From NCBI GenBank assembly GCA_013334965.1, contig JAAXWO010000004.1:1-64000 (forward strand): a stretch of 64,000 nucleotides of DNA, written 5' to 3'. This DNA comes from Chlorobiaceae bacterium (GTDB taxonomy: Bacteria > Bacteroidota > Chlorobiia > Chlorobiales > Chlorobiaceae). Positions 13,920-51,765 of this stretch are shown one piece after another (positions within the stretch are counted from its first letter, which is position 1; every line of letters starts with the position of its first letter). The notes under the pieces were generated by a model, which was not told the origin of the DNA, did not search any database, and was given only the letters and a program-made list of their open reading frames with translations. The position numbers and the translations under genes are program-made.

Positions 13920-14476
13920 AAAAGAGTCTGAAGTAAAACTGGTTTGTCTAGAACATCCTATTGAACCATAGCTTACCAATCCTCCTCGTTCTGAATTATA
14001 ACCCACATATTATTCAGCCCGACCATTTCAGCTCACCCATTATCTGCCCTGTTATCCCCAATCAATCCTATATAAAAAAACTGTGTTTTTATCGATTATT
14101 TAAATCGCTCGCATATGAATCTGTATTTGTTTTATGACATTTTCATATATTTGACGTAGTAGTATTTCGAGCAGTACCGATTCAAAAATCATCAACTCTC
14201 GGATATGAATATCTCCCCTTTCCGTTACTGTTTCCCCTCGGCTTCCAGCCAGTTTAAAACTTCATCGTTCAGACTCTGACCAGACGCAATCAGAATACAT
14301 TTTTTTTGTGCATCAAGATCCATGATCAGTCACAACTGATCTGAGATAATATTGAATTCAGGTATTACGCATTATATACTCTTTCTGTTCGTGGCTTTTT
14401 CATTATTGGAGCTTGAGTCATATAAGCGATAAGCGGTCTTATCTATCAATACATATTCATTCTAAAGAAAAACAAT
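13920..14476. other. AT-rich intergenic region upstream of the RTX gene
   Basis: This 557-base stretch is noticeably more AT-rich than its neighbours and marks the left edge of an accessory stretch. No tRNA, transposase or repeat is recognised. One short minus-strand frame, 14323 to 14225, would encode 32 residues (MDLDAQKKCILIASGQ... ending NWLEAEGKQ). Its codon use looks protein-like, but it lacks a clear ribosome-binding site and could be a gene remnant. The right end should contain the promoter of the giant RTX gene; no consensus promoter can be assigned with confidence. Confidence 0.5.
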
Positions 14477-17400
14477 ATGGCCATAGTTAACGACAAGGGT
14501 CTGGTTACCACTGACTTTGGTGGTGCTTTCGATGCTGGGGCTGGTGTAACGGTTCAGACCGATGGCAAGATTCTCGTAACGGCAATGAGCAACCACGAGT
14601 TCGCATTGTTGCGTTACAACACTGACGGTAGCCTCGACACGAGCTTTTCCGGTGACGGGAAGCTCACAACCGATTTTGGGGGAACGGACGAATGTGCTTT
14701 AAAGGCCGTTGTGCAGTCTGATGGAAAGATTCTTGTCGCAGGTCAAAGTAACAACGGAGCTCACTATGTACTTGCCCTTGCCCGATATAATACTGATGGA
14801 AGCCTCGACACATCCTTCGGCGGGGGTGATGGCAAAGTGACTGGCGTTATTTGTGCTACGAGCATTGCCCTGCAAAGCGACGGCATGATCCTGATTGCCG
14901 GCAACACTCCAGACTCAGCCGCTGTGGCAAGATATGACACTGATGGAAACATTGACACATCCTTAGGGGGGGGAGACGGCATCGCGACCTATGGTTCCAA
15001 TACATCTGCCCAAAGCGTCGTCGTATCCGGAGGAAGAATCTTCGTCGGTGGAGCCGTAGGAAATGGCTCCAACATTGATTTTACCATCACCTGCTTCGAC
15101 TCAACCGGCATTCCTGATCCCACATTTGGAAGTGGTGGAACAATCACCACTAATTTCGGGGCCAATGATATCGGTAGCAGCATGGTAGTCCAGCCTGACG
15201 GAAAGATTCTCCTTGCAGGTTACTCTTATTCTGGATCGATAGCAGGGAACTTCGCAGTGTCTCGTTATAACACAGACGGCACTCTTGATACCTCCTTCTC
15301 CGGGGATGGCAAACTCACGACCAACCTGGGCACAAACTATGATCGAGGTTATTGTATAACCTTGCAGCCGGACGGGAAGATTCTCGTATCCGGACACAGC
15401 AATACCGCCATCGGTCTGGTACGATACAACGCTGACGGAACTCTCGACACCGGCTTTTCCGGCGATGGCATAGTGATCGCCGGCATTGGCGGCATAATGG
15501 ATATCAACGGCGATCACAAGATTTATACCGGCATGGGAGTGACGGTGCAGGAGGACGGCAAAATCCTTGTCACGGGTCAGAGCAACGGAGATGTCGCCCT
15601 GGTAAGATTCAACAGCGACGGCAATTTCGACTCCAGCTTCTCCAGCGGCCATCTGTTGGTCGGTACAGCATCTGATGACACGATAGCCGGCGTCGGCGGC
15701 AACGACACGCTCATTGGTGGTGACGGAAATGACCAGCTCAACGGAGGTGACGGAAATGACGTCATCGATGGAAACGCCAGTAACGATACTGTGGGATTAA
15801 GGGGTAACTTCAGCGACTACACCTTCAGTTATGATGCAGACAAAAATGTTTTGACAGTGACCGATACTGTTGCCGGCCGCGATGGCACGGACCTTGTCAA
15901 GGATGTTGAAAACTTCAGGTTTGCCGATACGACAAAAACAGCAGCAGATATAGGTGCGGTAAAGATGATTTCCAACAAAGGCCTGGTAACCACGGACTTC
16001 AATGGAGGCCTTGATGTCGGGATAGGCGTAACGATGCAGAGCGATGGCAAGATTCTGGTGACATCAATCGCCGATTTCAAATTTGCGCTCACACGCCACA
16101 ACACAGACGGCAGTCTCGATTCAACCTTTTCCGGCGATGGCAAGCTCACAACCGATTTTGGCGGTACCAATGAATGTGCCCTTAAGGCACTGGAACAGGC
16201 CGATCACAAGATTATTGCTGTTGGACAAAGTTACAAGGGAACTGACTATACCCTCGCACTGGCACGATACAATCCTGACGGAAGCCTCGATACTACCTTT
16301 GATGGTGACGGTATCGTAACCGGTGATATTTGTCCTTATGACATGGCATTGAAAAGCGATGGCAAAATCCTGGTTCTGGGAAGTATATCCGGTGCCCCTG
16401 CAATAGCACGATATAACTCTGACGGTAGCCTCGACACATCATTTGGCGTCGATGGGTTGGTAATAGGTATCCCCAACGTTTATCTGGGTTGTTTAGTCGA
16501 AATCGCTGACCATAAAATCCTCTTGGGAGGATATGTATTAAGCGGCAGTTACAGCAACAATGATTTCGGCCTTATCTGCCTTGACGAAAACGGCAATCTC
16601 GACACGGGCTTCGGTACTGACGGCGTGGTCTGGACTGGCTTTGGAGGAATAACCGGGGATGGAGCCAATGACAGGGCGCAAAGAATGGTAATACAGGCTG
16701 ACGGCAAGATTCTTCTGGCAGGGTACCGAATGAGCGGGAGCAATGACATAGCCCTCGCACGCTTTAATGCCGATGGAAGCCTCGATACAACCTTTGGTGG
16801 AGGCGATGGCAAAATCGTTACCGACCTGGGTGGTTATGACCAGGGCTACAGTATGGCTTTGCAGGACGACGGCAAGATACTCGTGTCAGGGCACAGCAAT
16901 ACCTCCATTGCCCTGGTTCGGTACAATGCTGACGGCAGCCTTGACAATACCTTCTCGAACGATGGCATTGTTATCGAAGGCATTGGTGGCATCTTTGATA
17001 TCAATGGAAGCGGCAACATCTTTACCGGCATGGGCGTTGCGGTACAATCCGACGGCAAGATTGTCGTTACGGGACAGAGCAGCGGAGATGTCGCATTGTT
17101 AAGGGTCAACAGCGACGGCAGTCTCGACCAAAGCTTCTCGAGCGGCCACAGGCTGGTCGGCGCCAATCCTGACGATTCGATCAATGGCTATGGCGGCGAT
17201 GACACGCTCATCGGTGGAGCAGGTAATGACACGCTGTCGGGCGGAACGGGCAATGACGTCATCGACGGAGGAGATGGCAATCATGATACGGCGGTGTTCA
17301 GCGGTAATTTTGCCGATTACGCCTTCAGTTATGATGCAGACAAAAACGTCCTCACTGTAACTGATAAAGTAACCGGTCGTGATGGCACGGATCTTCTGAA

Positions 17401-20400
17401 TGATGTTGAATACTTCAGGTTTGCCGATACGACAAAAACAGCGGCAGAGGTGGATGCTGTAAAGATGATTTCCGATAAAGGCCTGGTAACCACGGACTTT
17501 GGCAGCGGAATTGATGGCAGTATGGGTGTTACCGTGCAGGACGATGACAAGATTCTCGTTACAGGGAGCGGCAACAGTCATTTCGCCATCGCGCGCTACA
17601 ACCCTGACGGCTCACTCGACAACTCCTTTTCCGGCGACGGCAAACTCTCCGCAGATTTCGGCGGCTCGCCCGAATGTATCGTCAGTAATGCAATACAACC
17701 ACTTGACCAGAAGATCGTTGTTGTCGGACAGAGTTACACCGGAAGTGAGTACACCCTCGTCCTCGCCCGCTACAACGCTGACGGAAGCCTCGACACCTCT
17801 TTTGGCGAAGGCGATGGCATGGTGACCGGCAATATTTGTCCTTACCATGTAGCCTTGCAGAGCGATGGTAAAATTCTGGTTGTGGGTGCAAATGCCGGTT
17901 ATTCGGCACTGGAACGATATAATTCTGACGGAACCCTGGATCTTTCCTTCGGCGGAGGCGATGGCATATCAACAGCCAGCCCTGCGGCTTCTCCGCAGAG
18001 CGTAGTCGAGCTCTCAGATCACAGGATTCTCGTTGGGGGGTATGCCTGGAATGGTTCAAACAATGATTTCGGCTTTATTTGCTTTGACGCAGACGGCAAT
18101 ATCGATACGAGCTTCGGTACCAGCGGCGTTGTCCTGACTGACTTCGGCGCGAATGAAAAAGGAATGAGCATGGTGTTAAGACCCGACGGCCATATACTCC
18201 TTGCTGGTTTCCGGATAAGCGTAAGCGGATTGCATAAAGAAGATTTCGTACTCGCGCTTTATAATACAGATGGAAGCCTGGATACGACGTTTGGGGGTGG
18301 TGATGGCAAAGTCGGTACCTCCCTCGGTGGTTATGACCAGGGCTACAGCGTAGCGATGCAGGACGACGGCAAAATTCTGGTGTCCGGACACAGCGATAAT
18401 TCGATTGCCCTTGTTCGTTACAATGCTGATGGCAGCTTTGACACGACCTTCTCGAACGATGGCATCGTGACCGTGGATATCGGCACTGTCCTGGATATCA
18501 ACGGCTCAGGGAACATCTATACCGGCTTGGGCGTAACAGTACAGAACGATGGGAAGATCCTCGTCACGGGCCAGAGCAACGGCGACTTCGCCGTGGTAAG
18601 ATTCAACAGCGACGGCAGTCTCGATACTGGCTTCTCCAGCGGCCACACCTTGACCGGCACCGATCAGGCCGATTCAATATATGGCTATGGAGGCAACGAC
18701 ACGCTTATTGGCGGTGCCGGCAATGATATCCTTGATGGTGGTGCCGGAATGGATTGGGCCGACTATAGCGGCAAAACCCTGGATGTATCGGTTACCCTTA
18801 ACGGCCCCATAAACGCTACGGTCAAGGTGGGTGGCATTGCTGAAGATACTATCCGGAGCATTGAAAATCTGAAAGGCGGATCCGGCAACGATACCTTCAT
18901 TGGTGACAGTGCCGACAACTCATTTGAAGGCGGCGCTGGCAACGACGCCCTGAATGGCGGAACCGGGAACGACACTCTGGACGGCGGGACAGGAAACGAT
19001 ACGCTTATCGGGGGAACGGGCAATGACACCTTGGTCGTGGACACCCTCGGTGATATCGTTAAAGAATCCGCCTCCGCCGGTATTGATACCGTGCAATCAA
19101 GCATTACCTACACGATAGGGGCCAATATTGAAAACCTCACACTGACGGGTTCATCCAACATTAATGGAACCGGCAACACGCTGGATAATATCCTTATCGG
19201 CAACAGCGGCAACAATATCCTCGACGGTGGCGCGGGAAATGATACGATGCAGGGTGGAGATGGAAACGACACCTATATCGTCGACAGAATCGGAGATGTC
19301 GTCAGAATCGGAGATGTCGTCACGGAATCGGTTTCTGCCGGCATCGACACCGTGCAATCAAAAGTTTCATTCACGTTGGCTGCCAACATAGAAAACCTTA
19401 CCCTGACAGGCACTACCAGCATTAACGGGACCGGCAACGAACTTGACAATATCCTTGTCGGCAACAATGGGAACAATATCCTCGACGGTAGCGCGGGAAA
19501 TGACACGATGCAGGGTGGAGCTGGAAACGACACCTATATTGTCGACAGCGCTGGTGATGTCGTCACGGAATCAGTTTCAGCCGGAATCGATACCCTGCAA
19601 TCAAGCATTACCTATGCCTTGGGAACAAACGTTGAAAACCTGACGCTGATGGGGTCAGATGACATTAACGGAACCGGCAACTCCCTGGTCAACACCCTTA
19701 TCGGCAACAGCGGCAACAATATCCTTGACGGTGGCGCGGGAAATGACACGATGCTGGGTGGAACCGGAAACGATATCTATGTTGTCGACAATGTCAGGGA
19801 TGTGGTCACTGAATCAGTTTCAGCCGGAATTGATACCGTCCTATCCAGTATTACCTACACGATAGGGTTAAATATTGAAAACCTCACACTGACAGGTTCA
19901 TCAAACATTAATGGAACCGGCAATATTCTGGATAATACCCTTATCGGCAACAGCGGAAACAATTTCCTCAACGGAGGAGCTGGTAATGATACGATGGAGG
20001 GCGGAACTGGAAATGACACCTACATTGTCGACAGCACCTACGATGTGGTGAATGAGTCGGCCTCTGCAGGAACAGATACCGTACAATCGACTGCTACATT
20101 CACTTTAGGAAATAACGTCGAAAACCTGACACTGACGGGATCGACCCACATCAATGGAACCGGCAACGAACTGGATAATGTGCTTATCGGCAACAGCGGA
20201 AACAACATCCTCGATGGTGGCGCGGGAAATGATACGATGCTGGGCGGAGCTGGAAACGACACCTATCTTGTCGACAGCACCCATGATGTGGTGATTGAGT
20301 CGGCCTCTGCAGGAACAGATACCGTACAATCAACTGCTTCGTTCACTTTAGGGGCTAACGTGGAAAACCTGACGCTGACCGGTTCATCAGACGTAAATGC

Positions 20401-20887
20401 TACTGGCAATTCCCTGGCCAATATCCTTGTCGGTAACAGCGGCAGCAATATCCTCAACGGAGGAGCCGGCAATGATACGATCCAGGGAGGGGACAATGAT
20501 GATACATTAATCGGAGGCAACGGCAACGACATTCTGACGGGTGGGACAGGATCTGATTGTTTCGTCTTCAATGCAGTGGCGAATGCACTTTCGAACAAAG
20601 ATACCGTGACCGATTTTGAGTTGGGGATAGATGAACTTCAATTCAGTAAAGCTGTTTATGTCGGTCTCGGAACAATTGCAGGTGATCTTGACGCGACGAA
20701 ATTCTGGTCGGGCGCCGGAGTGGTGAAGGCTCATGACGCAGATGATCGAATCGTCTATAACACCTCCACGGGTGCGCTATACTACGATGCTGATGGATTG
20801 GGTGGAATGGCTGCAATCCAGATTGCTGTTATCGGCACAGTCTCGCATCCTGGCCTGGCGTTTACTGATATCAATATCATCAATTGA
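14477..20887 (+). CDS. Giant RTX-type secreted protein with three delta-60 propeller modules
   Basis: A 2,136-residue protein without a Sec signal. It begins with three tandem homologous modules starting at residues 1, 497 and 997 (about 496 and 500 residues apart). Each module has seven delta-60 repeats of the type LDTSFGGDGK...DGKILVAG, so each is predicted to form a seven-bladed beta-propeller. Modules one and two end with a short GGxGNDxL RTX block and a conserved linker containing FRFADTTKTAA. After about residue 1395 come dense calcium-binding GGxGxD nonapeptides, then six 81-residue repeats (1515-2006), and a C-terminal domain (about 2020-2136) with FVFNAV, VTDFELGIDELQF and ALYYDADG, typical of type I secretion substrates. 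No ABC/HlyD/TolC exporter genes lie in the window. A role in adhesion or as a cell-surface protein is inferred; toxicity is not indicated. Confidence 0.88.
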   Translation: MAIVNDKGLVTTDFGGAFDAGAGVTVQTDGKILVTAMSNHEFALLRYNTDGSLDTSFSGDGKLTTDFGGTDECALKAVVQSDGKILVAGQSNNGAHYVLALARYNTDGSLDTSFGGGDGKVTGVICATSIALQSDGMILIAGNTPDSAAVARYDTDGNIDTSLGGGDGIATYGSNTSAQSVVVSGGRIFVGGAVGNGSNIDFTITCFDSTGIPDPTFGSGGTITTNFGANDIGSSMVVQPDGKILLAGYSYSGSIAGNFAVSRYNTDGTLDTSFSGDGKLTTNLGTNYDRGYCITLQPDGKILVSGHSNTAIGLVRYNADGTLDTGFSGDGIVIAGIGGIMDINGDHKIYTGMGVTVQEDGKILVTGQSNGDVALVRFNSDGNFDSSFSSGHLLVGTASDDTIAGVGGNDTLIGGDGNDQLNGGDGNDVIDGNASNDTVGLRGNFSDYTFSYDADKNVLTVTDTVAGRDGTDLVKDVENFRFADTTKTAADIGAVKMISNKGLVTTDFNGGLDVGIGVTMQSDGKILVTSIADFKFALTRHNTDGSLDSTFSGDGKLTTDFGGTNECALKALEQADHKIIAVGQSYKGTDYTLALARYNPDGSLDTTFDGDGIVTGDICPYDMALKSDGKILVLGSISGAPAIARYNSDGSLDTSFGVDGLVIGIPNVYLGCLVEIADHKILLGGYVLSGSYSNNDFGLICLDENGNLDTGFGTDGVVWTGFGGITGDGANDRAQRMVIQADGKILLAGYRMSGSNDIALARFNADGSLDTTFGGGDGKIVTDLGGYDQGYSMALQDDGKILVSGHSNTSIALVRYNADGSLDNTFSNDGIVIEGIGGIFDINGSGNIFTGMGVAVQSDGKIVVTGQSSGDVALLRVNSDGSLDQSFSSGHRLVGANPDDSINGYGGDDTLIGGAGNDTLSGGTGNDVIDGGDGNHDTAVFSGNFADYAFSYDADKNVLTVTDKVTGRDGTDLLNDVEYFRFADTTKTAAEVDAVKMISDKGLVTTDFGSGIDGSMGVTVQDDDKILVTGSGNSHFAIARYNPDGSLDNSFSGDGKLSADFGGSPECIVSNAIQPLDQKIVVVGQSYTGSEYTLVLARYNADGSLDTSFGEGDGMVTGNICPYHVALQSDGKILVVGANAGYSALERYNSDGTLDLSFGGGDGISTASPAASPQSVVELSDHRILVGGYAWNGSNNDFGFICFDADGNIDTSFGTSGVVLTDFGANEKGMSMVLRPDGHILLAGFRISVSGLHKEDFVLALYNTDGSLDTTFGGGDGKVGTSLGGYDQGYSVAMQDDGKILVSGHSDNSIALVRYNADGSFDTTFSNDGIVTVDIGTVLDINGSGNIYTGLGVTVQNDGKILVTGQSNGDFAVVRFNSDGSLDTGFSSGHTLTGTDQADSIYGYGGNDTLIGGAGNDILDGGAGMDWADYSGKTLDVSVTLNGPINATVKVGGIAEDTIRSIENLKGGSGNDTFIGDSADNSFEGGAGNDALNGGTGNDTLDGGTGNDTLIGGTGNDTLVVDTLGDIVKESASAGIDTVQSSITYTIGANIENLTLTGSSNINGTGNTLDNILIGNSGNNILDGGAGNDTMQGGDGNDTYIVDRIGDVVRIGDVVTESVSAGIDTVQSKVSFTLAANIENLTLTGTTSINGTGNELDNILVGNNGNNILDGSAGNDTMQGGAGNDTYIVDSAGDVVTESVSAGIDTLQSSITYALGTNVENLTLMGSDDINGTGNSLVNTLIGNSGNNILDGGAGNDTMLGGTGNDIYVVDNVRDVVTESVSAGIDTVLSSITYTIGLNIENLTLTGSSNINGTGNILDNTLIGNSGNNFLNGGAGNDTMEGGTGNDTYIVDSTYDVVNESASAGTDTVQSTATFTLGNNVENLTLTGSTHINGTGNELDNVLIGNSGNNILDGGAGNDTMLGGAGNDTYLVDSTHDVVIESASAGTDTVQSTASFTLGANVENLTLTGSSDVNATGNSLANILVGNSGSNILNGGAGNDTIQGGDNDDTLIGGNGNDILTGGTGSDCFVFNAVANALSNKDTVTDFELGIDELQFSKAVYVGLGTIAGDLDATKFWSGAGVVKAHDADDRIVYNTSTGALYYDADGLGGMAAIQIAVIGTVSHPGLAFTDINIIN
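19019..20494 (+). repeat. Six in-frame 81-residue RTX repeats with an 18-base tandem duplication
   Basis: Six copies of a 243-base unit, each encoding a block of the form GNDTYIVDSxxDVV...SAGIDTVQS...NVENLTLTG...INGTGN...LIGNSGNNILDGGAGNDTM. The homologous CTGG motif recurs at 19181, 19442, 19685, 19928, 20171 and 20414: spacing is exactly 243 bases except the first, which is 261. The extra 18 bases are a perfect tandem duplication of AGAATCGGAGATGTCGTC at 19286-19303 and 19304-19321. Confidence 0.93.
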
Positions 20888-20945: not shown

Positions 20946-20985
20946 AGAAAGCCGGGGATTTCCTCCCGGCTTTCTCTGTTGTTTC
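20946..20985 (+). terminator. Hairpin terminator after the RTX gene
   Basis: AGAAAGCCGGG (20946-20956) pairs perfectly with CCCGGCTTTCT (20965-20975), an 11-bp stem with loop GATTTCCT, followed by CTGTTGTTT. The T-rich tail is imperfect, but the stem is strong and placed 58 bases after the stop. Confidence 0.75.
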
Positions 20986-21149: not shown

Positions 21150-22181
21150 ATGAAGCACTACATCGTCGGTATACTGGCTGCATACCTGATCCTTTCCCCA
21201 ATAACGGGTTATTGCGAACCTCCATCACAGGAGCAAGTCTCGGAATGGCGCAAGGACGCGGCTCAAGGCAAGGCATATGCGCAATTCAATCTCGGGCAGA
21301 TGTACGACAACGGGGATGGGGTGGCGCAGAACTATTCCGAAGCCCTGAAGTGGTATGAGAAGGCTGCTTCGCAGGGGGATTCAAATGCGCTGTACAATAT
21401 CGGACAGATGTACAACAATGGCCATGGGGTCCGGCAGAACTATTTCATAGCGCTGAAATGGTATAAAAAGGCTGCCGAACTCGGAAACTCAAAGGCATTT
21501 TTCAGTCTCGGAGTGATGTACGATAACGGCCATGGGGTACTGAGAAGCAATGCTGAAGCCGTGAAGTGGTACAAAAAAGCCGCGTTGCAGGGTGATAAGC
21601 AGGCACAGTTAAATCTTGGCGTCATGTTTGAAAACGGCATCGGACAGCAGAACTATGCCGAATCGGTAAACTGGTACCGGATGGCTGCCGAACAGGGCAA
21701 TACGAACGCACAATACAATCTCGGATTGATGTACAGCGCCGGTCGTGGTGTTCCACAGAACTATACCGAGGCGTCAAAATGGTTTCTTATGGCGGCCCGG
21801 AATGGCAATGCACAGGCACAATTCAATCTTGGTGTAATGTACACGGACGGTCAGGGGGTTCCGCAGGACTATGCGGAATCTTTGAAGTGGTATCAACAGG
21901 CTGCCGCAAACGGGATTCTCAAGGCATCATACAACATTGGCGTGATGTACGCTGCCGGCAGGGGGGTGACGCAGGATTATGCCGAGGCAATGAAATGGTA
22001 TCAGCAGGCCGCAACAAAGGGAATGCTCAAGGCACAATTCAATATCGCCCAGATGTATGAAAACGGGCAGGGCGTCCCGCAGGACAAACAAAAGGCAAAG
22101 ATATGGTACGGCAAGGCGTGCGTCAATGGTGACAAGCAAAGCTGCGACGCCTTCCGAAGGCTGAGCGCTGCCGGATATTGA
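21150..22181 (+). CDS. Exported Sel1-like repeat protein
   Basis: A 343-residue protein with a Sec signal peptide (VGILAAYLILSPITG, cleavage near residue 23 at YC-EP). The mature part is eight consecutive Sel1-like repeats of 36 residues, each of the pattern AQxNLGxMYxxGxGVxQNYxEAxKWYxxAAxxG. These alpha-solenoids scaffold protein interactions in the periplasm or at the surface. The Cys before the cleavage site could allow lipid attachment but lacks a convincing lipobox. It lies on the same strand downstream of the RTX gene, separated by a terminator. A second Sel1 protein is encoded at 45557-46489. Confidence 0.88.
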   Translation: MKHYIVGILAAYLILSPITGYCEPPSQEQVSEWRKDAAQGKAYAQFNLGQMYDNGDGVAQNYSEALKWYEKAASQGDSNALYNIGQMYNNGHGVRQNYFIALKWYKKAAELGNSKAFFSLGVMYDNGHGVLRSNAEAVKWYKKAALQGDKQAQLNLGVMFENGIGQQNYAESVNWYRMAAEQGNTNAQYNLGLMYSAGRGVPQNYTEASKWFLMAARNGNAQAQFNLGVMYTDGQGVPQDYAESLKWYQQAAANGILKASYNIGVMYAAGRGVTQDYAEAMKWYQQAATKGMLKAQFNIAQMYENGQGVPQDKQKAKIWYGKACVNGDKQSCDAFRRLSAAGY

Positions 22182-45556: not shown

Positions 45557-46489
45557 TTATTTTTGAGCTGAGAATATAAACATCCGCAATCGTTTCAGTG
45601 CCCGCCGTGCATGTTCATTCCCCTGCATTGCAGATTTTCGATACCATTTTGCCGCCATGTACTCATCCGCCGGTACCCCGATGCCAAACTGATAGAAGCA
45701 GCCCAGATTCAACTGGGCAATCGGATCGCCCTGCGCTGAAGCCAAGGTGAACCACTTGAGGGCCTCGGCCGGATTCTCAGCCACTCCCTGGCCATTGAAA
45801 TACATATATCCAAGGTCGCACTGAGCCATGGCATTTCCCTGTAAAGCGGACTTATGGAACCATTTGACAGCCTCCCGGCTGCTATGGGGCACACCTTCGC
45901 CCATTTCATACATCTTGCCCAGTCTGAACTGAGCCATCGCGTCTCCCTGGTCGGCAGCTTTTGTTAACCACCAGGCAGCTTCCCTGAAGCTCCGGGAAAC
46001 CCCCTCTCCGACCATATACAGATAAGCGAGCTCACGTTGGGCATTCGGCTCTCCCTGTTCGGCGGCTTTACGAAACCACACCGCAGCCTCCCTGAAGCTT
46101 TTGGAAACACCACAACCTTTTGCATACATGAACCCGACGACAAACTGCGCTTCAGGGTCTCCCTGTTCAGCGACCTTACGAAACCATGTCCCATCGAAAT
46201 CAGCTCCCCCCAGGACTCCGATATCCAGCAAAGAGTTATCCCCGGATTGGTTTTGTACGAGACCCCTTACAGACTCGGCAGCTTGACGACTCGACCTCAC
46301 CTCCAGCGAACCTGGTGTCGATGTAACATGAACCTTGTAACGCTTTAAACCATCGCCCGACCGGTCATCCTCATCCCCGTGCCTGGCGCTTACACCCAAC
46401 GTATCAAGCCTTGCAGGAGTAGCTGCCCGTACTGACACGAACGGGTAGAAGACGCACAGTGCGGCGCATAAAAGAATTTTTTTCAGCAT
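45557..46489 (-). CDS. Exported Sel1-like repeat protein
   Basis: A 310-residue protein with a signal peptide (KKILLCAALCVFYPFVSVRA), a disordered polar segment to about residue 95, and five Sel1-like repeats (for example AQFVVGFMYAKGCGVSKSFREAAVWFRKAAEQG). It is the second Sel1 protein of the window but is not a close copy of the one at 21150. The start at 46489 is preferred over the upstream ATG at 46513 because the basic-hydrophobic signal begins there. It is convergent with the binding-protein gene. Confidence 0.83.
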   Translation of the reverse strand: MLKKILLCAALCVFYPFVSVRAATPARLDTLGVSARHGDEDDRSGDGLKRYKVHVTSTPGSLEVRSSRQAAESVRGLVQNQSGDNSLLDIGVLGGADFDGTWFRKVAEQGDPEAQFVVGFMYAKGCGVSKSFREAAVWFRKAAEQGEPNAQRELAYLYMVGEGVSRSFREAAWWLTKAADQGDAMAQFRLGKMYEMGEGVPHSSREAVKWFHKSALQGNAMAQCDLGYMYFNGQGVAENPAEALKWFTLASAQGDPIAQLNLGCFYQFGIGVPADEYMAAKWYRKSAMQGNEHARRALKRLRMFIFSAQK

Positions 46490-46825
46490 GGGTCTCATCA
46501 GGGGTTGAGCCACGTTTGAAGAGTATTGTTCCGAAAGCTTGTCCGGCTTCGGAGATCATCGTGAAATAAAGCTCGAAAAGGAGTAAAGGATAATGGCTCC
46601 GCCATCCATACGATGGGCAGAAGACATATCCAGAAATCCGTTCACCAGTTGAAAGAGCGGCGTTGTGATCTGAAAGTGATAAACTCATTGTCGCTCCGGT
46701 TCAGGGGAAACTGATGCAACATATCAGAGGATATCATTATGGACCTGTACAGAGCATGATACCAGGTCAAATATACGACAATTCATACATTTTTATTACA
46801 TCGCCACAATAAAAAGCCGGTCAGG
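46490..46825. other. Intergenic region, nothing recognised
   Basis: These 336 bases lie between the lipocalin gene and the Sel1 gene, both on the minus strand. Minus-strand frames here, for example to 46688, lack conserved character. The region should hold the terminator of the lipocalin unit and the promoter of the Sel1 gene; neither can be assigned from sequence alone. Confidence 0.5.
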
Positions 46826-49581: not shown

Positions 49582-51765
49582 TCAGACGATATGAACCTCC
49601 ATATCCGTTGCGTACTCCGGAGAGACCACGCCGATCAGAACGACTGGCTCGGAATCATCTCCATAACCGACAAACGCTTCCCCTGAAGCAGACGAAGTCG
49701 AACCGTTTCCCGAATGGTAGAGGGAGTCCGTAGAGAGGCTCTGGCTGGTTGAAACACTACCCGTTACGCCAAGAATCCCGGCACTCCCCAAAGGTTGAGC
49801 TGTTGTGGTCAGGAAATTTTCCAGCTGTTCAAGAGACCATGCGGACGCATAATCGTCATGTGCCGACAAGAGCAGCGCTGCTGCTCCGGAAACGTACGGC
49901 GTAGCCATCGAGGTCCCGCTCAGCACTTTATAGATTCCGCCCTTGTAGGTGCTATAAACATTCACTCCGGGAGCCACGACATAATCGTAAGGGCCATTCG
50001 CTCCTGCGTCGTTACTGAATGAAGCCACGACATTGCTGCTGTTGACTGCTCCGACAGCAACTCCTCCAACGGTTTCAGCCAGGACGGCCGGATAGGTCGG
50101 AGATGTCCGGTTGTCGTTGCCTGATGCCATGCAAACGATAACCCCGTGATTGATGGCGTAGGTAATTGCGCTGGAAAGATCAGGTGATGATGCACCGAAA
50201 GCACCCAAAGACATGCTTATGATATTTGCACCATTGTTCACGGCATACATTACCCCGGCCGCAACCCCGGAAAAAGATCCGCTCCCGGAAGAGTTCAGCA
50301 CCTTGACCGGCATAATCGTCGCATCATAGGCAACACCCGTCACCCCAGAACCGTTGTTCAATCCGGCAATTATTCCTGAAACGTGGGTACCGTGGCCGTT
50401 GTCGTCAAGCGCATAGCCGTCCTTGTTGACAAAATCATAACCGTAAATGTCATCGATATATCCGTTTCCATCGTCATCCAAACCGTTTCCAGCAATTTCG
50501 AGCTTGTTTATCCAGATATTGCTGCCAAGGTCACTGTGCGTATAATCGACGCCGGTGTCGACGACCGCCACGATGACGCCTTTTCCGGTATACCCTGCCT
50601 GCCATGCGTCAGGGGCCTGAATGTTGTTGAGTCCCCAATCATTGGAACCGGCAAGGGGTGATGCGTCGGCGATAACCTTGTTGGTAGCCTTTTCCAGCAT
50701 CGCGTCCACATTGAGAAGTCCATACCCTGTTACCGTATTCCAGATCGCCCCGGAAGTAATTGTCCTGAAGTCATAGGTTGCTGTGCCAGCATATTTGTTG
50801 CCGGAAAGATCCGTAACGGTTCCCTGATCAAGGGTCACAAAGTACTGGGTGGCGTTGTCAAGGTCATGGAGAGGATCGATCTTAAGGGTAGAGCCTGAGA
50901 AAAGCAGCCTGTCGCTGGTTGAGACATCAAAGCTTTCGAAAATCGCTCCATCCGCCGATCCGGTATGGATTTCGACCAGACCTGCGCCAGCTTTGATCGT
51001 TTCGTTGAACGTCAACGTAATATTGGCCCCAACCGAAGCGTTGGTGCTGCCGTCAGCAGGGCTGAACCTGGTTACAACCGGCGCGCTCGTATCGACATTA
51101 CTGGTTCTAAAGTCATAGGAAGCCGTCCCCGCATAACTGTTTCCGGCCAGATCGACAACAGCCCCCTTGGCCACTGTCACGAAATACCTTGTATAGCCTG
51201 AGAGGTTGTTAACAGGATCGATGGTCAGCTTTGTTCCAAGGAAGGTGACCCTGTCGCTTGATGCGGTATTGAAGCTTTCTACGACGACTCCCGAAGAAGA
51301 GCCGATACGGATCTGGATCAGCCCTGAACCGGCCTTGACTGATTCGTTGAACGTCATGGTAATATTGGTACCAACCGCGACATTGCTCATTCCGTCGGCA
51401 GGACTGAAAGCAGTAAGCCTTGGTGCGACAGAATCTCTTGATATCTTCACAGCCGCCTCAAATATATCGCCGTCACTGCTCCATTGAGCCGGAGAAAAAC
51501 CACCGTCAGCAAACCCGGAACAGATGCCGAACATATCATTCCGAACATTGATGGTTTCGCCATGTCCCCTGTCAGGCAGAGAACCGTGCAAAGCGTTTTC
51601 CGAATAATCGGTTTGACTCAAAAAGGCAATTCCATCAAATTCGGACAACAAGTCTGCTTTGCCCTCTTCATTGATGGTGCGGCCCCCTCTTGCTGCAACA
51701 ATACCCGTTTCAGTCTGATTAACGAGCAATGAACCTTTATACAGAACATTTCTGGACATAAGCAT
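49582..51765 (-). CDS. Subtilisin-like serine protease with N-terminal Ig-like domains
   Basis: A 727-residue protein without an obvious Sec signal. After about 110 residues of unassigned sequence come two similar Ig-like (Big_5/SwmB type) domains near 112-220 and 225-335, each with PADG...VGxNIT(M/L)TFNE. The peptidase S8 domain spans about 380-660 with Asp403 (VVDTG), His458 (GHGTHVSG), Asn550 (ASGN) and Ser619 (GTSMATP), so it should be active. The segment GLDDDGNGYIDD is a likely calcium loop. In most bacterial subtilases Ig-like domains follow the catalytic domain; here they come first. Non-classical or type I export is likely. The 286 bases between its stop and purU hold no confident gene. 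Confidence 0.87.
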   Translation of the reverse strand: MLMSRNVLYKGSLLVNQTETGIVAARGGRTINEEGKADLLSEFDGIAFLSQTDYSENALHGSLPDRGHGETINVRNDMFGICSGFADGGFSPAQWSSDGDIFEAAVKISRDSVAPRLTAFSPADGMSNVAVGTNITMTFNESVKAGSGLIQIRIGSSSGVVVESFNTASSDRVTFLGTKLTIDPVNNLSGYTRYFVTVAKGAVVDLAGNSYAGTASYDFRTSNVDTSAPVVTRFSPADGSTNASVGANITLTFNETIKAGAGLVEIHTGSADGAIFESFDVSTSDRLLFSGSTLKIDPLHDLDNATQYFVTLDQGTVTDLSGNKYAGTATYDFRTITSGAIWNTVTGYGLLNVDAMLEKATNKVIADASPLAGSNDWGLNNIQAPDAWQAGYTGKGVIVAVVDTGVDYTHSDLGSNIWINKLEIAGNGLDDDGNGYIDDIYGYDFVNKDGYALDDNGHGTHVSGIIAGLNNGSGVTGVAYDATIMPVKVLNSSGSGSFSGVAAGVMYAVNNGANIISMSLGAFGASSPDLSSAITYAINHGVIVCMASGNDNRTSPTYPAVLAETVGGVAVGAVNSSNVVASFSNDAGANGPYDYVVAPGVNVYSTYKGGIYKVLSGTSMATPYVSGAAALLLSAHDDYASAWSLEQLENFLTTTAQPLGSAGILGVTGSVSTSQSLSTDSLYHSGNGSTSSASGEAFVGYGDDSEPVVLIGVVSPEYATDMEVHIV

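What the first reader, a model, noticed from the sequence alone, without database searches (positions are those of the whole stretch)
14477..20887. Three tandem seven-repeat propeller modules fused to an RTX export tail
Each of three ~500-residue modules contains exactly seven DGKIL-type delta-60 repeats (counted by eye), the number expected for a closed seven-bladed propeller. The protein would be three propellers in a row, separated by short calcium-binding RTX linkers, then a long RTX stalk and a type I secretion tail. A three-propeller RTX surface protein is not a standard architecture that I know of.
Basis: partly seen in the sequence, partly recalled or inferred. Interest (0 to 1): 0.75.

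Follow-up and report, generated by a model that had tools for sequence, protein, structure and literature searches.

The report
Three-propeller secreted RTX protein
A green sulfur bacterium carries a gene for a large, probably calcium-binding and exported protein that strings three ring-shaped seven-bladed propellers ahead of a repeat-rich stalk; the building blocks are known and similar strings occur in relatives, so it is a tidy new example rather than a new kind of thing.

Summary
One ORF (14477-20887, 2136 aa) has 21 delta-60 repeats (TIGR02608, E 8e-280), seven in each of three modules. AlphaFold2 gives 28 strands (7 x 4) per module, blade 7 being completed by the module's N-terminal strand; no open solenoid. 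Linkers and stalk are RTX, and the tail matches Peptidase_M10_C.

Pfam already names the repeat a beta-propeller. In 122 fetched stretches, 172 of 182 clusters of five or more repeats held 7, 8, 14 or 15 hits. Two- to four-propeller proteins occur in other Chlorobiaceae and in Proteobacteria, some with RTX. 'Surface protein' is only inferred.

Best lead: the closest solved fold is CylK, an RTX-like/propeller enzyme (Z 42; next 32), though sequence searches did not show it.

The gene looks recently gained: 1 of 21 genus genomes, between uvrC and a TPR gene adjacent in 17 of 20 relatives. Most likely a type I-exported ligand-binding or adhesion protein; function untested.

The parts
14477..20887 (+). 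ORF, 2136 aa, predicted 217 kDa, pI 4.05: three delta-60 propellers plus RTX stalk and tail
14352..14380 (+). sigma-70-like promoter match TTGAAT-17-TATACT upstream of the ORF (9 of 12)
   Evidence: 15 found, 11.3 expected by chance, so weak
14477..15652 (+). propeller 1, residues 1-392, 7 delta-60 repeats
14501..14512 (+). closing strand of propeller 1 (residues 9-12), completes blade 7
   Evidence: strand list; pairing inferred
15653..15964 (+). RTX linker 1, residues 393-496
   Evidence: low-confidence fold
15965..17146 (+). propeller 2, residues 497-890, 7 repeats
15983..15994 (+). closing strand of propeller 2 (residues 503-506)
   Evidence: strand list; pairing inferred
17147..17464 (+). 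RTX linker 2, residues 891-996
   Evidence: low-confidence fold
17465..18649 (+). propeller 3, residues 997-1391, 7 repeats
17483..17494 (+). closing strand of propeller 3 (residues 1003-1006)
   Evidence: strand list; pairing inferred
18650..20470 (+). RTX stalk, residues 1392-1998, with six ENLTL-type repeats spaced 81 aa apart (the first spacing is 87)
20471..20884 (+). C-terminal tail, residues 1999-2136: last RTX motifs and type I-type export region (Peptidase_M10_C match at about residues 1998-2058)
   Evidence: export signal inferred
20946..20975 (+). intrinsic-terminator-like hairpin, 12-pair stem, after the gene
   Evidence: 5 found, 7.4 expected by chance, so weak as a scan

Best explanation
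It is an exoprotein of the RTX class. It is made without an evident Sec signal, exported unfolded through a type I secretion system encoded elsewhere in the genome, and folds outside the cell as calcium nucleates its C-terminal RTX beta-rolls. Once folded it presents three closed seven-bladed delta-60 propellers in a row, spaced by short RTX rolls, at the end of an RTX stalk. The propellers most likely act as repeated ligand-binding heads, which gives avidity for a polysaccharide or for partner-cell surfaces, so the protein probably serves adhesion or cell-cell contact. Three copies arose by duplicating a whole propeller-plus-linker unit. Shown by sequence: repeat counts, RTX content, whole-module duplication, and that the gene lies between two genes adjacent in sister genomes. 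Shown by prediction only: closed propellers. Inferred: type I export, calcium-dependent folding, ligand binding, adhesion.
For: Repeats 7+7+7. 28 strands per module, with the split blade completed by the N-terminal strand. Modules 1 and 3 align end to end onto seven-bladed PDB rings, e.g. streptogramin B lyase 2qc5, rmsd 2.2-2.3 over 285-286 residues. RTX linkers and stalk, serralysin-type tail. Acidic pI 4.05; the N-terminus runs directly into the propeller's closing strand. Two PrtD-type ABC exporters over cut-off beside a HlyD on C6, and a HlyD over cut-off on C12. Same blade between modules 64.7% identical on average (21 pairs) against 46.6% for different blades (126 pairs); the three modules form one clade, SH-aLRT 96, in a quick tree of 69 modules. 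Published context: large RTX adhesin-like genes of green sulfur bacteria are proposed contact proteins (PMC7762298; PMC4053972; passages read); the propeller-bearing BapP of Pseudoalteromonas tunicata is a calcium-dependent biofilm adhesin (PMC12153261, passages read).
Against: No HlyD match lies on the window's contig, and only two weak, below-cut-off ABC matches lie in the window, about 19 kb away; TolC was not searched. No anchor domain was listed by Pfam and the propeller starts at residue 9, so the protein may simply be released. The propellers carry 4, 4 and 3 cysteines, which from general knowledge is unusual for type I substrates. Only one other ORF of the genome shares the tail, and it is not beside the exporters found. 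The closest solved propeller, CylK, is an enzyme, not an adhesin. No ligand-binding site was identified. The linker folds are low confidence (pLDDT blocks 31-73), so the arrangement of the propellers is unknown.
Confidence: 0.55

Rival explanations
1. Enzyme, CylK-like: the propellers are catalytic or substrate-holding domains, each with its active cleft at the interface with a neighbouring RTX roll, as in the alkylating enzyme CylK. RTX then serves export and folding of a secreted enzyme.
For: CylK is the top solved match by a wide margin: Z 42.5 over 336 residues at 20% identity, against 32.3 over 283 at 11% for the next family. For module 3, Z 41.4 over 335 against 31.6 over 285. CylK is itself an RTX-like domain plus a propeller with the active site between them (PMC8916777, passages). 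Linker 2 followed by propeller 3 has CylK's domain order.
Against: Sequence searches do not show CylK: not among 60 of 66 rows at E up to 10 for the family profile, not among 18 rows at E up to 1 for the window modules, nor among 10 and 3 rows for two relatives' modules. By sequence the profile's best PDB hits are the designed propeller v31Bagel8 (5.9e-11) and TRIM71 (8.2e-9). The predicted packing of linker on propeller has no confidence (linker pLDDT blocks 31-53). Catalytic residues (Arg105, Tyr473, Asp440 in the paper) were not mapped, and the genome was not searched for a CylC halogenase.
Confidence: 0.15
2. Structural or S-layer-like matrix protein: the propellers are spacers in an RTX protein that coats the cell or its extracellular matrix, without a specific ligand.
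For: Strongly repetitive, acidic RTX protein without a recognised anchor or catalytic domain. In fetched relatives the number of propellers varies from 1 to 4, with variable neighbouring domains in the seven relatives scanned.
Against: Only 1 of 21 genus genomes has the repeat, unlike a core surface layer. Modules have diverged to 61-65% identity while keeping blade order.
Confidence: 0.2
3. The gene is a decaying or unexpressed acquired gene with no present role.
For: Repeat found in one of 21 genus genomes; GC3 0.55 against 0.65-0.72 in neighbouring conserved genes. Split copies exist in relatives (L054, L055).
Against: The 6.4-kb frame is intact and all 21 repeats score well. A promoter-like site and a terminator-like hairpin flank it, though the scans as a whole are not above chance.
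Confidence: 0.1

Closest known systems
TIGR02608 delta-60 repeat / Pfam DUF5122 (PF17164) propeller family
   Same: The 21 repeats are matched by TIGR02608 (20 stretches by DUF5122); seven per module
   Different: Nothing in the repeat itself; only the number of modules and the RTX context
CylK, Friedel-Crafts alkylating enzyme of Cylindrospermum licheniforme (7RON, 7ROO, 7FH6)
   Same: Closest solved fold: seven-bladed propeller, fused to an RTX-like calcium domain (PMC8916777 passages)
   Different: One propeller, C-terminal to one modified RTX-like domain; not shown by sequence searches; an enzyme
RTX exoproteins exported by type I secretion (review PMC3034196, passages only)
   Same: Nonapeptide repeats, serralysin-type C-terminus, acidic pI
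   Different: Propellers as N-terminal cargo, where the known ones I recall carry toxin, protease, lipase or Ig-type adhesin domains
BapP of Pseudoalteromonas tunicata (PMC12153261, passages)
   Same: Propeller plus repeated calcium-binding domains, proposed type I export, adhesin
   Different: One five-bladed propeller by prediction and twelve Ig-like domains; no homology tested here
L184 Sulfuritalea MAG 2440-aa ORF, and L053 same-family ORF of 1696 aa cut by the contig end
   Same: Three delta-60 modules plus RTX; L184 also has Peptidase_M10_C
   Different: L184 modules score 6,7,7 and it has an Ig-type domain; L053 has Ig-type Big_5 domains and its C-terminal end is missing

Membership tests
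delta-60 repeat family (TIGR02608) / DUF5122 | profile match over the curated whole-protein cut-off | tested here: met
   903 bits against 76.5; DUF5122 605 bits against 27
seven-bladed beta-propeller | seven four-stranded blades | tested here: met
   28 strands in each of three predicted modules; prediction, not experiment
seven-bladed beta-propeller | ring closure rather than open solenoid | tested here: met
   Split-blade closing strand in all three; modules 1 and 3 align end to end on rings at 2.2-2.3 A. Module 2 rests on strand pattern and 61-65% identity.
RTX proteins | tandem GGxGxD nonapeptide repeats over the family cut-off | tested here: met
   PF00353 258 bits, cut-off 23
RTX proteins | calcium binding and calcium-dependent folding | not testable with these tools
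   needs protein
type I secretion substrates | C-terminal export region, no Sec signal | tested here: inconclusive
   Peptidase_M10_C match 25.1 bits over cut-off 20.7; N-terminus runs into the propeller strand; no signal-peptide predictor or secretion test was run
type I secretion substrates | exporter genes in the genome | tested here: met
   two PrtD-type ABC and two HlyD loci over cut-off, on contigs other than the window's; TolC not searched
RTX adhesins (LapA/Bap type) | N-terminal retention module and Ig-like extender domains | tested here: not met
   Pfam matches over cut-off are DUF5122, HemolysinCabind, ANAPC4_WD40 and, in the tail, Peptidase_M10_C; no Ig-type domain at E up to 1, and the propeller begins at residue 9. 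Not filed as a LapA/Bap-type adhesin
CylK family | fold of the propeller | tested here: met
   Z 42.5 and 41.4, well above other propellers
CylK family | sequence homology | tested here: inconclusive
   not shown (60 of 66 rows seen); 18-20% identity in the structural alignments
CylK family | catalytic Arg105, Tyr473, Asp440 | not tested
   no residue-level structural alignment available
CylK family | calcium at blade junctions | not testable with these tools
   for the first repeat, N48 in 59, D50 in 54, G51 in 69 and D54 in 67 of 69 aligned modules would suit a metal site, but this is inference

The most novel reading that the evidence does not exclude
Delta-60 propellers are a broad family of CylK-type, calcium-stapled propellers, and this protein repeats the CylK unit (RTX roll packed on a propeller face) in tandem, making an exported array with a binding or catalytic cleft at each roll-propeller interface. 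If so, the family's fold, its calcium use and its place of action would all be predicted at once from CylK.
Probability: 0.15. Interest if true: 0.65.

Novelty: new member of a known kind. Interest (0 to 1): 0.38.

Why it matters
The module size of seven, seen across many phyla, gives a clear structural meaning to a repeat for which 'delta-60 repeat' and TIGR02608 return no paper, and DUF5122 one, in the library searched. The strong fold match to CylK offers a solved template, and a testable idea that each blade junction holds calcium, for a widespread family that Pfam still lists as of unknown function. For green sulfur bacteria it adds a medium-sized, tractable protein to the list of large RTX proteins proposed to mediate cell contacts.

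Tried and rejected

The first genome contigs and viral-contig scans with the three window modules confirmed no relatives; the second genome-contig scan with a wider alignment gave 80 loci. The viral result is weak evidence of absence, since the genome-contig scan failed with the same alignment.

Considered and rejected: an open solenoid; chance repeats (weakest domain E 9.5e-18); independent recruitment of each propeller (same-blade identity and tree). The tree is the quick one, as the careful search did not finish, and many of its deeper forks are open.

The module cysteines as a family-wide feature were rejected: at the places of C73, C126 and C206 a cysteine stands in 3, 5 and 3 of 69 modules, the window's own three included.

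A shared export tail linking this gene to RTX genes beside secretion genes was not found: one other ORF (C9, 35% identity) matched the last 105 residues.

A sequence link to CylK was sought and not seen.

Regex counts of RTX motifs overcall: L138 had 5 by pattern but no PF00353 match, and L092's 4 compare with 2.4 in shuffles; I therefore name only Pfam-confirmed RTX examples.

No Rfam family at gathering score and no tRNA in the window. Phage, plasmid, E. coli and metagenome collections were not searched.
Full report
What is there. The window holds one ORF at 14477-20887 on the + strand, 2136 aa. NCBIfam TIGR02608 (delta-60 repeat) matches it with 21 stretches and E 7.9e-280. Pfam DUF5122, whose description already says beta-propeller, gives 20 stretches. 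The 21 genomic hits fall at 14531-15652, 16013-17146 and 17513-18649, seven in each; none passes the curated cut-off alone (best 75.5 of 76.5 bits), and there are no others in the genome at E <= 0.001. A profile built from these same repeats recovers 7+7+7 with a weakest domain E of 9.5e-18.

Ring closure from sequence. Each module starts with a lone strand (KGLVTTDF-type), which is the end of a repeat, and its seventh repeat lacks that strand. This is the split-blade closure known from many propellers (general knowledge).

Ring closure from prediction. AlphaFold2 on residues 1-496 with 69 aligned modules gives mean pLDDT 85.2, mostly 95-99 in the propeller, and 28 strands that read as 7 x 4 once residues 9-12 complete blade 7. 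Residues 497-1395 give 28 strands in each of modules 2 and 3, with lower confidence (mean 80.5, pTM 0.51) from a 13-row alignment. Modules 1 and 3 align end to end on seven-bladed structures, for example streptogramin B lyase 2qc5 at rmsd 2.2 over 285 residues and 2.3 over 286. I had no coordinates to measure closure directly, and module 2 rests on its strand pattern and 61-65% identity to its neighbours. The RTX linkers are low confidence (pLDDT blocks 31-73), so how the three rings are arranged is unknown.

RTX and export. Linkers 1 and 2 each give two PF00353 stretches, and the last 741 residues give ten plus Peptidase_M10_C a little over its cut-off. The stalk holds six ENLTL-type repeats spaced 81 aa apart, the first spacing being 87. 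The protein is very acidic (pI 4.05) and starts directly in the propeller. The window has no type I secretion operon: no HlyD match lies on its contig, and its two ABC matches are below the PrtD cut-off. The genome has two PrtD-type ABC exporters next to a HlyD on contig C6. On C12 an ABC match (below the PrtD cut-off) and a HlyD (over cut-off) lie near a 2140-aa RTX frame. TolC was not searched. Type I export is plausible but not shown.

Relatives and the number seven. TIGR02608 hits occur in 1 of 21 genus genomes (the own one), 18 of 86 family genomes and 53 of 198 sampled phylum genomes. In 122 fetched stretches, some overlapping or covering the same gene, the profile found 249 repeat clusters at a lenient threshold. 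Of the 182 with five or more hits, 172 had 7 (100), 8 (53), 14 (11) or 15 (8); the other ten had 5 (five), 6 (four) or 10 (one). The remaining 67 had one to four hits, 54 of them single hits; they include broken or contig-cut modules and some on the opposite strand. In 50 of the 53 eights, the first or last hit covers under 60% of the model, as expected for a split blade. Seven is thus the usual module size of the family.

Multi-propeller architectures. Among 126 distinct ORFs with at least five full repeats (not all independent), ten have three or four propellers by repeat count. I scanned seven relatives with Pfam. RTX repeats are confirmed in four: L053 (three propellers, contig-cut), L184 (three, Sulfuritalea MAG), L166 and L121 (two each). 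They are not found in L138, L087 and L127. L053 comes from a genome of the same family. The fetched family genomes correspond to Chlorobiaceae: G216 contig C102 and CAILRB010000102.1, titled uncultured Chlorobiaceae, have the same length of 104409. The host is therefore taken to be a member of that family; its own name was not looked up.

Origin. The same blade in different modules is 64.7% identical on average (21 pairs), against 46.6% for different blades (126 pairs). In a quick tree of 69 modules the three form one clade (SH-aLRT 96), next to a module of a Chlorobiaceae MAG, L117. The two linkers are also closely alike by eye. So a propeller-plus-linker unit was probably duplicated twice. 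In 17 of 20 sister genomes the TPR gene lies next to uvrC. In one (G199) a Sel1 gene sits beside uvrC, and two loci are cut by contig ends. Here the propeller gene and a Sel1 gene lie in between. GC3 of the gene is 0.55, against 0.65-0.72 for the conserved genes around it. This looks like a gain in this lineage, though loss elsewhere is not excluded.

Closest solved fold. Foldseek and VIA-align put CylK first for both models: Z 42.5 over 336 residues and 41.4 over 335, against 32.3 and 31.6 for the next family. CylK is a fusion of an RTX-like calcium domain and a seven-bladed propeller with calcium at the blade junctions, long loops folded over the outside, and its active site between the domains (PMC8916777, passages read). 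Sequence does not show this link. CylK is not among 60 of 66 PDB rows at E up to 10 for the family profile, 18 rows for the window modules, or 10 and 3 rows for two relatives' modules. By sequence the best PDB hits of the profile are a designed propeller (v31Bagel8, 5.9e-11) and TRIM71 (8.2e-9). Kinship with CylK is therefore suggested by structure only. In the first repeat, N48, D50, G51 and D54 are kept in 59, 54, 69 and 67 of 69 modules; a calcium role for them is my inference.

How it probably works. The most likely picture is an exported RTX protein that folds in calcium outside the cell and displays three propellers as binding heads. Large RTX adhesin-like proteins are proposed contact proteins in green sulfur bacteria (PMC7762298; PMC4053972; passages), and a propeller-bearing calcium adhesin is known in Pseudoalteromonas (PMC12153261; passages). 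None of this shows what our protein binds. An enzymatic role like CylK's and a purely structural role remain open.

Literature search. 'delta-60 repeat', 'delta 60 repeat' and 'TIGR02608' gave no paper, and 'delta-60' with 'repeat' gave six that are unrelated by title. 'DUF5122' gave one, a contact-based modelling study (PMC8078820, passages) that lists template 2ymu_A, a WD40 protein as I recall. The library holds open-licence PMC papers only. Among the eleven listed papers no title reports a multi-propeller RTX protein, but I read passages of only two of them (PMC3034196, PMC12153261).

Verdict. The architecture is a new member of a known kind. The CylK link is the most useful new lead.

Noticed in passing
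window 21150-22181: Sel1-repeat protein (8 Sel1 stretches) directly after the propeller gene; in sister genome G199 a Sel1 gene (68% identical) sits next to uvrC without the propeller gene, suggesting stepwise insertion at one site.
   Followed up: partly
window 14477-18649: The three propellers share cysteines at equivalent places (73, 126, 206 in module 1) that are rare in other delta-60 modules; unusual for a type I substrate.
   Followed up: partly
L092 (G237 contig C27): A relative has an open frame of about 9840 aa with four delta-60 propellers near its start; the rest was not analysed.
   Followed up: no
L054 and L055: Delta-60 modules in two relatives are split over adjacent short frames, so decaying copies of the family seem to exist.
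   Followed up: no
L087 and L138: DUF4347 stands at the N-terminus of multi-propeller proteins in a same-family genome and in Sulfurisoma.
   Followed up: no
window 45557-46513: A second Sel1-repeat gene about 24 kb away, on the other strand, beside another low-GC stretch (42-46 kb).
   Followed up: no
window 49582-51765: Subtilase-family protease with two Big_5 Ig-like domains; Big_5 is also found in multi-propeller proteins of relatives.
   Followed up: no
G000 contigs C12, C13, C6: Other RTX-repeat frames in the same genome (2140, 1488, 1658 and 5712 aa); on C12 the 2140-aa frame is followed by an ABC transporter and a HlyD-like gene.
   Followed up: partly
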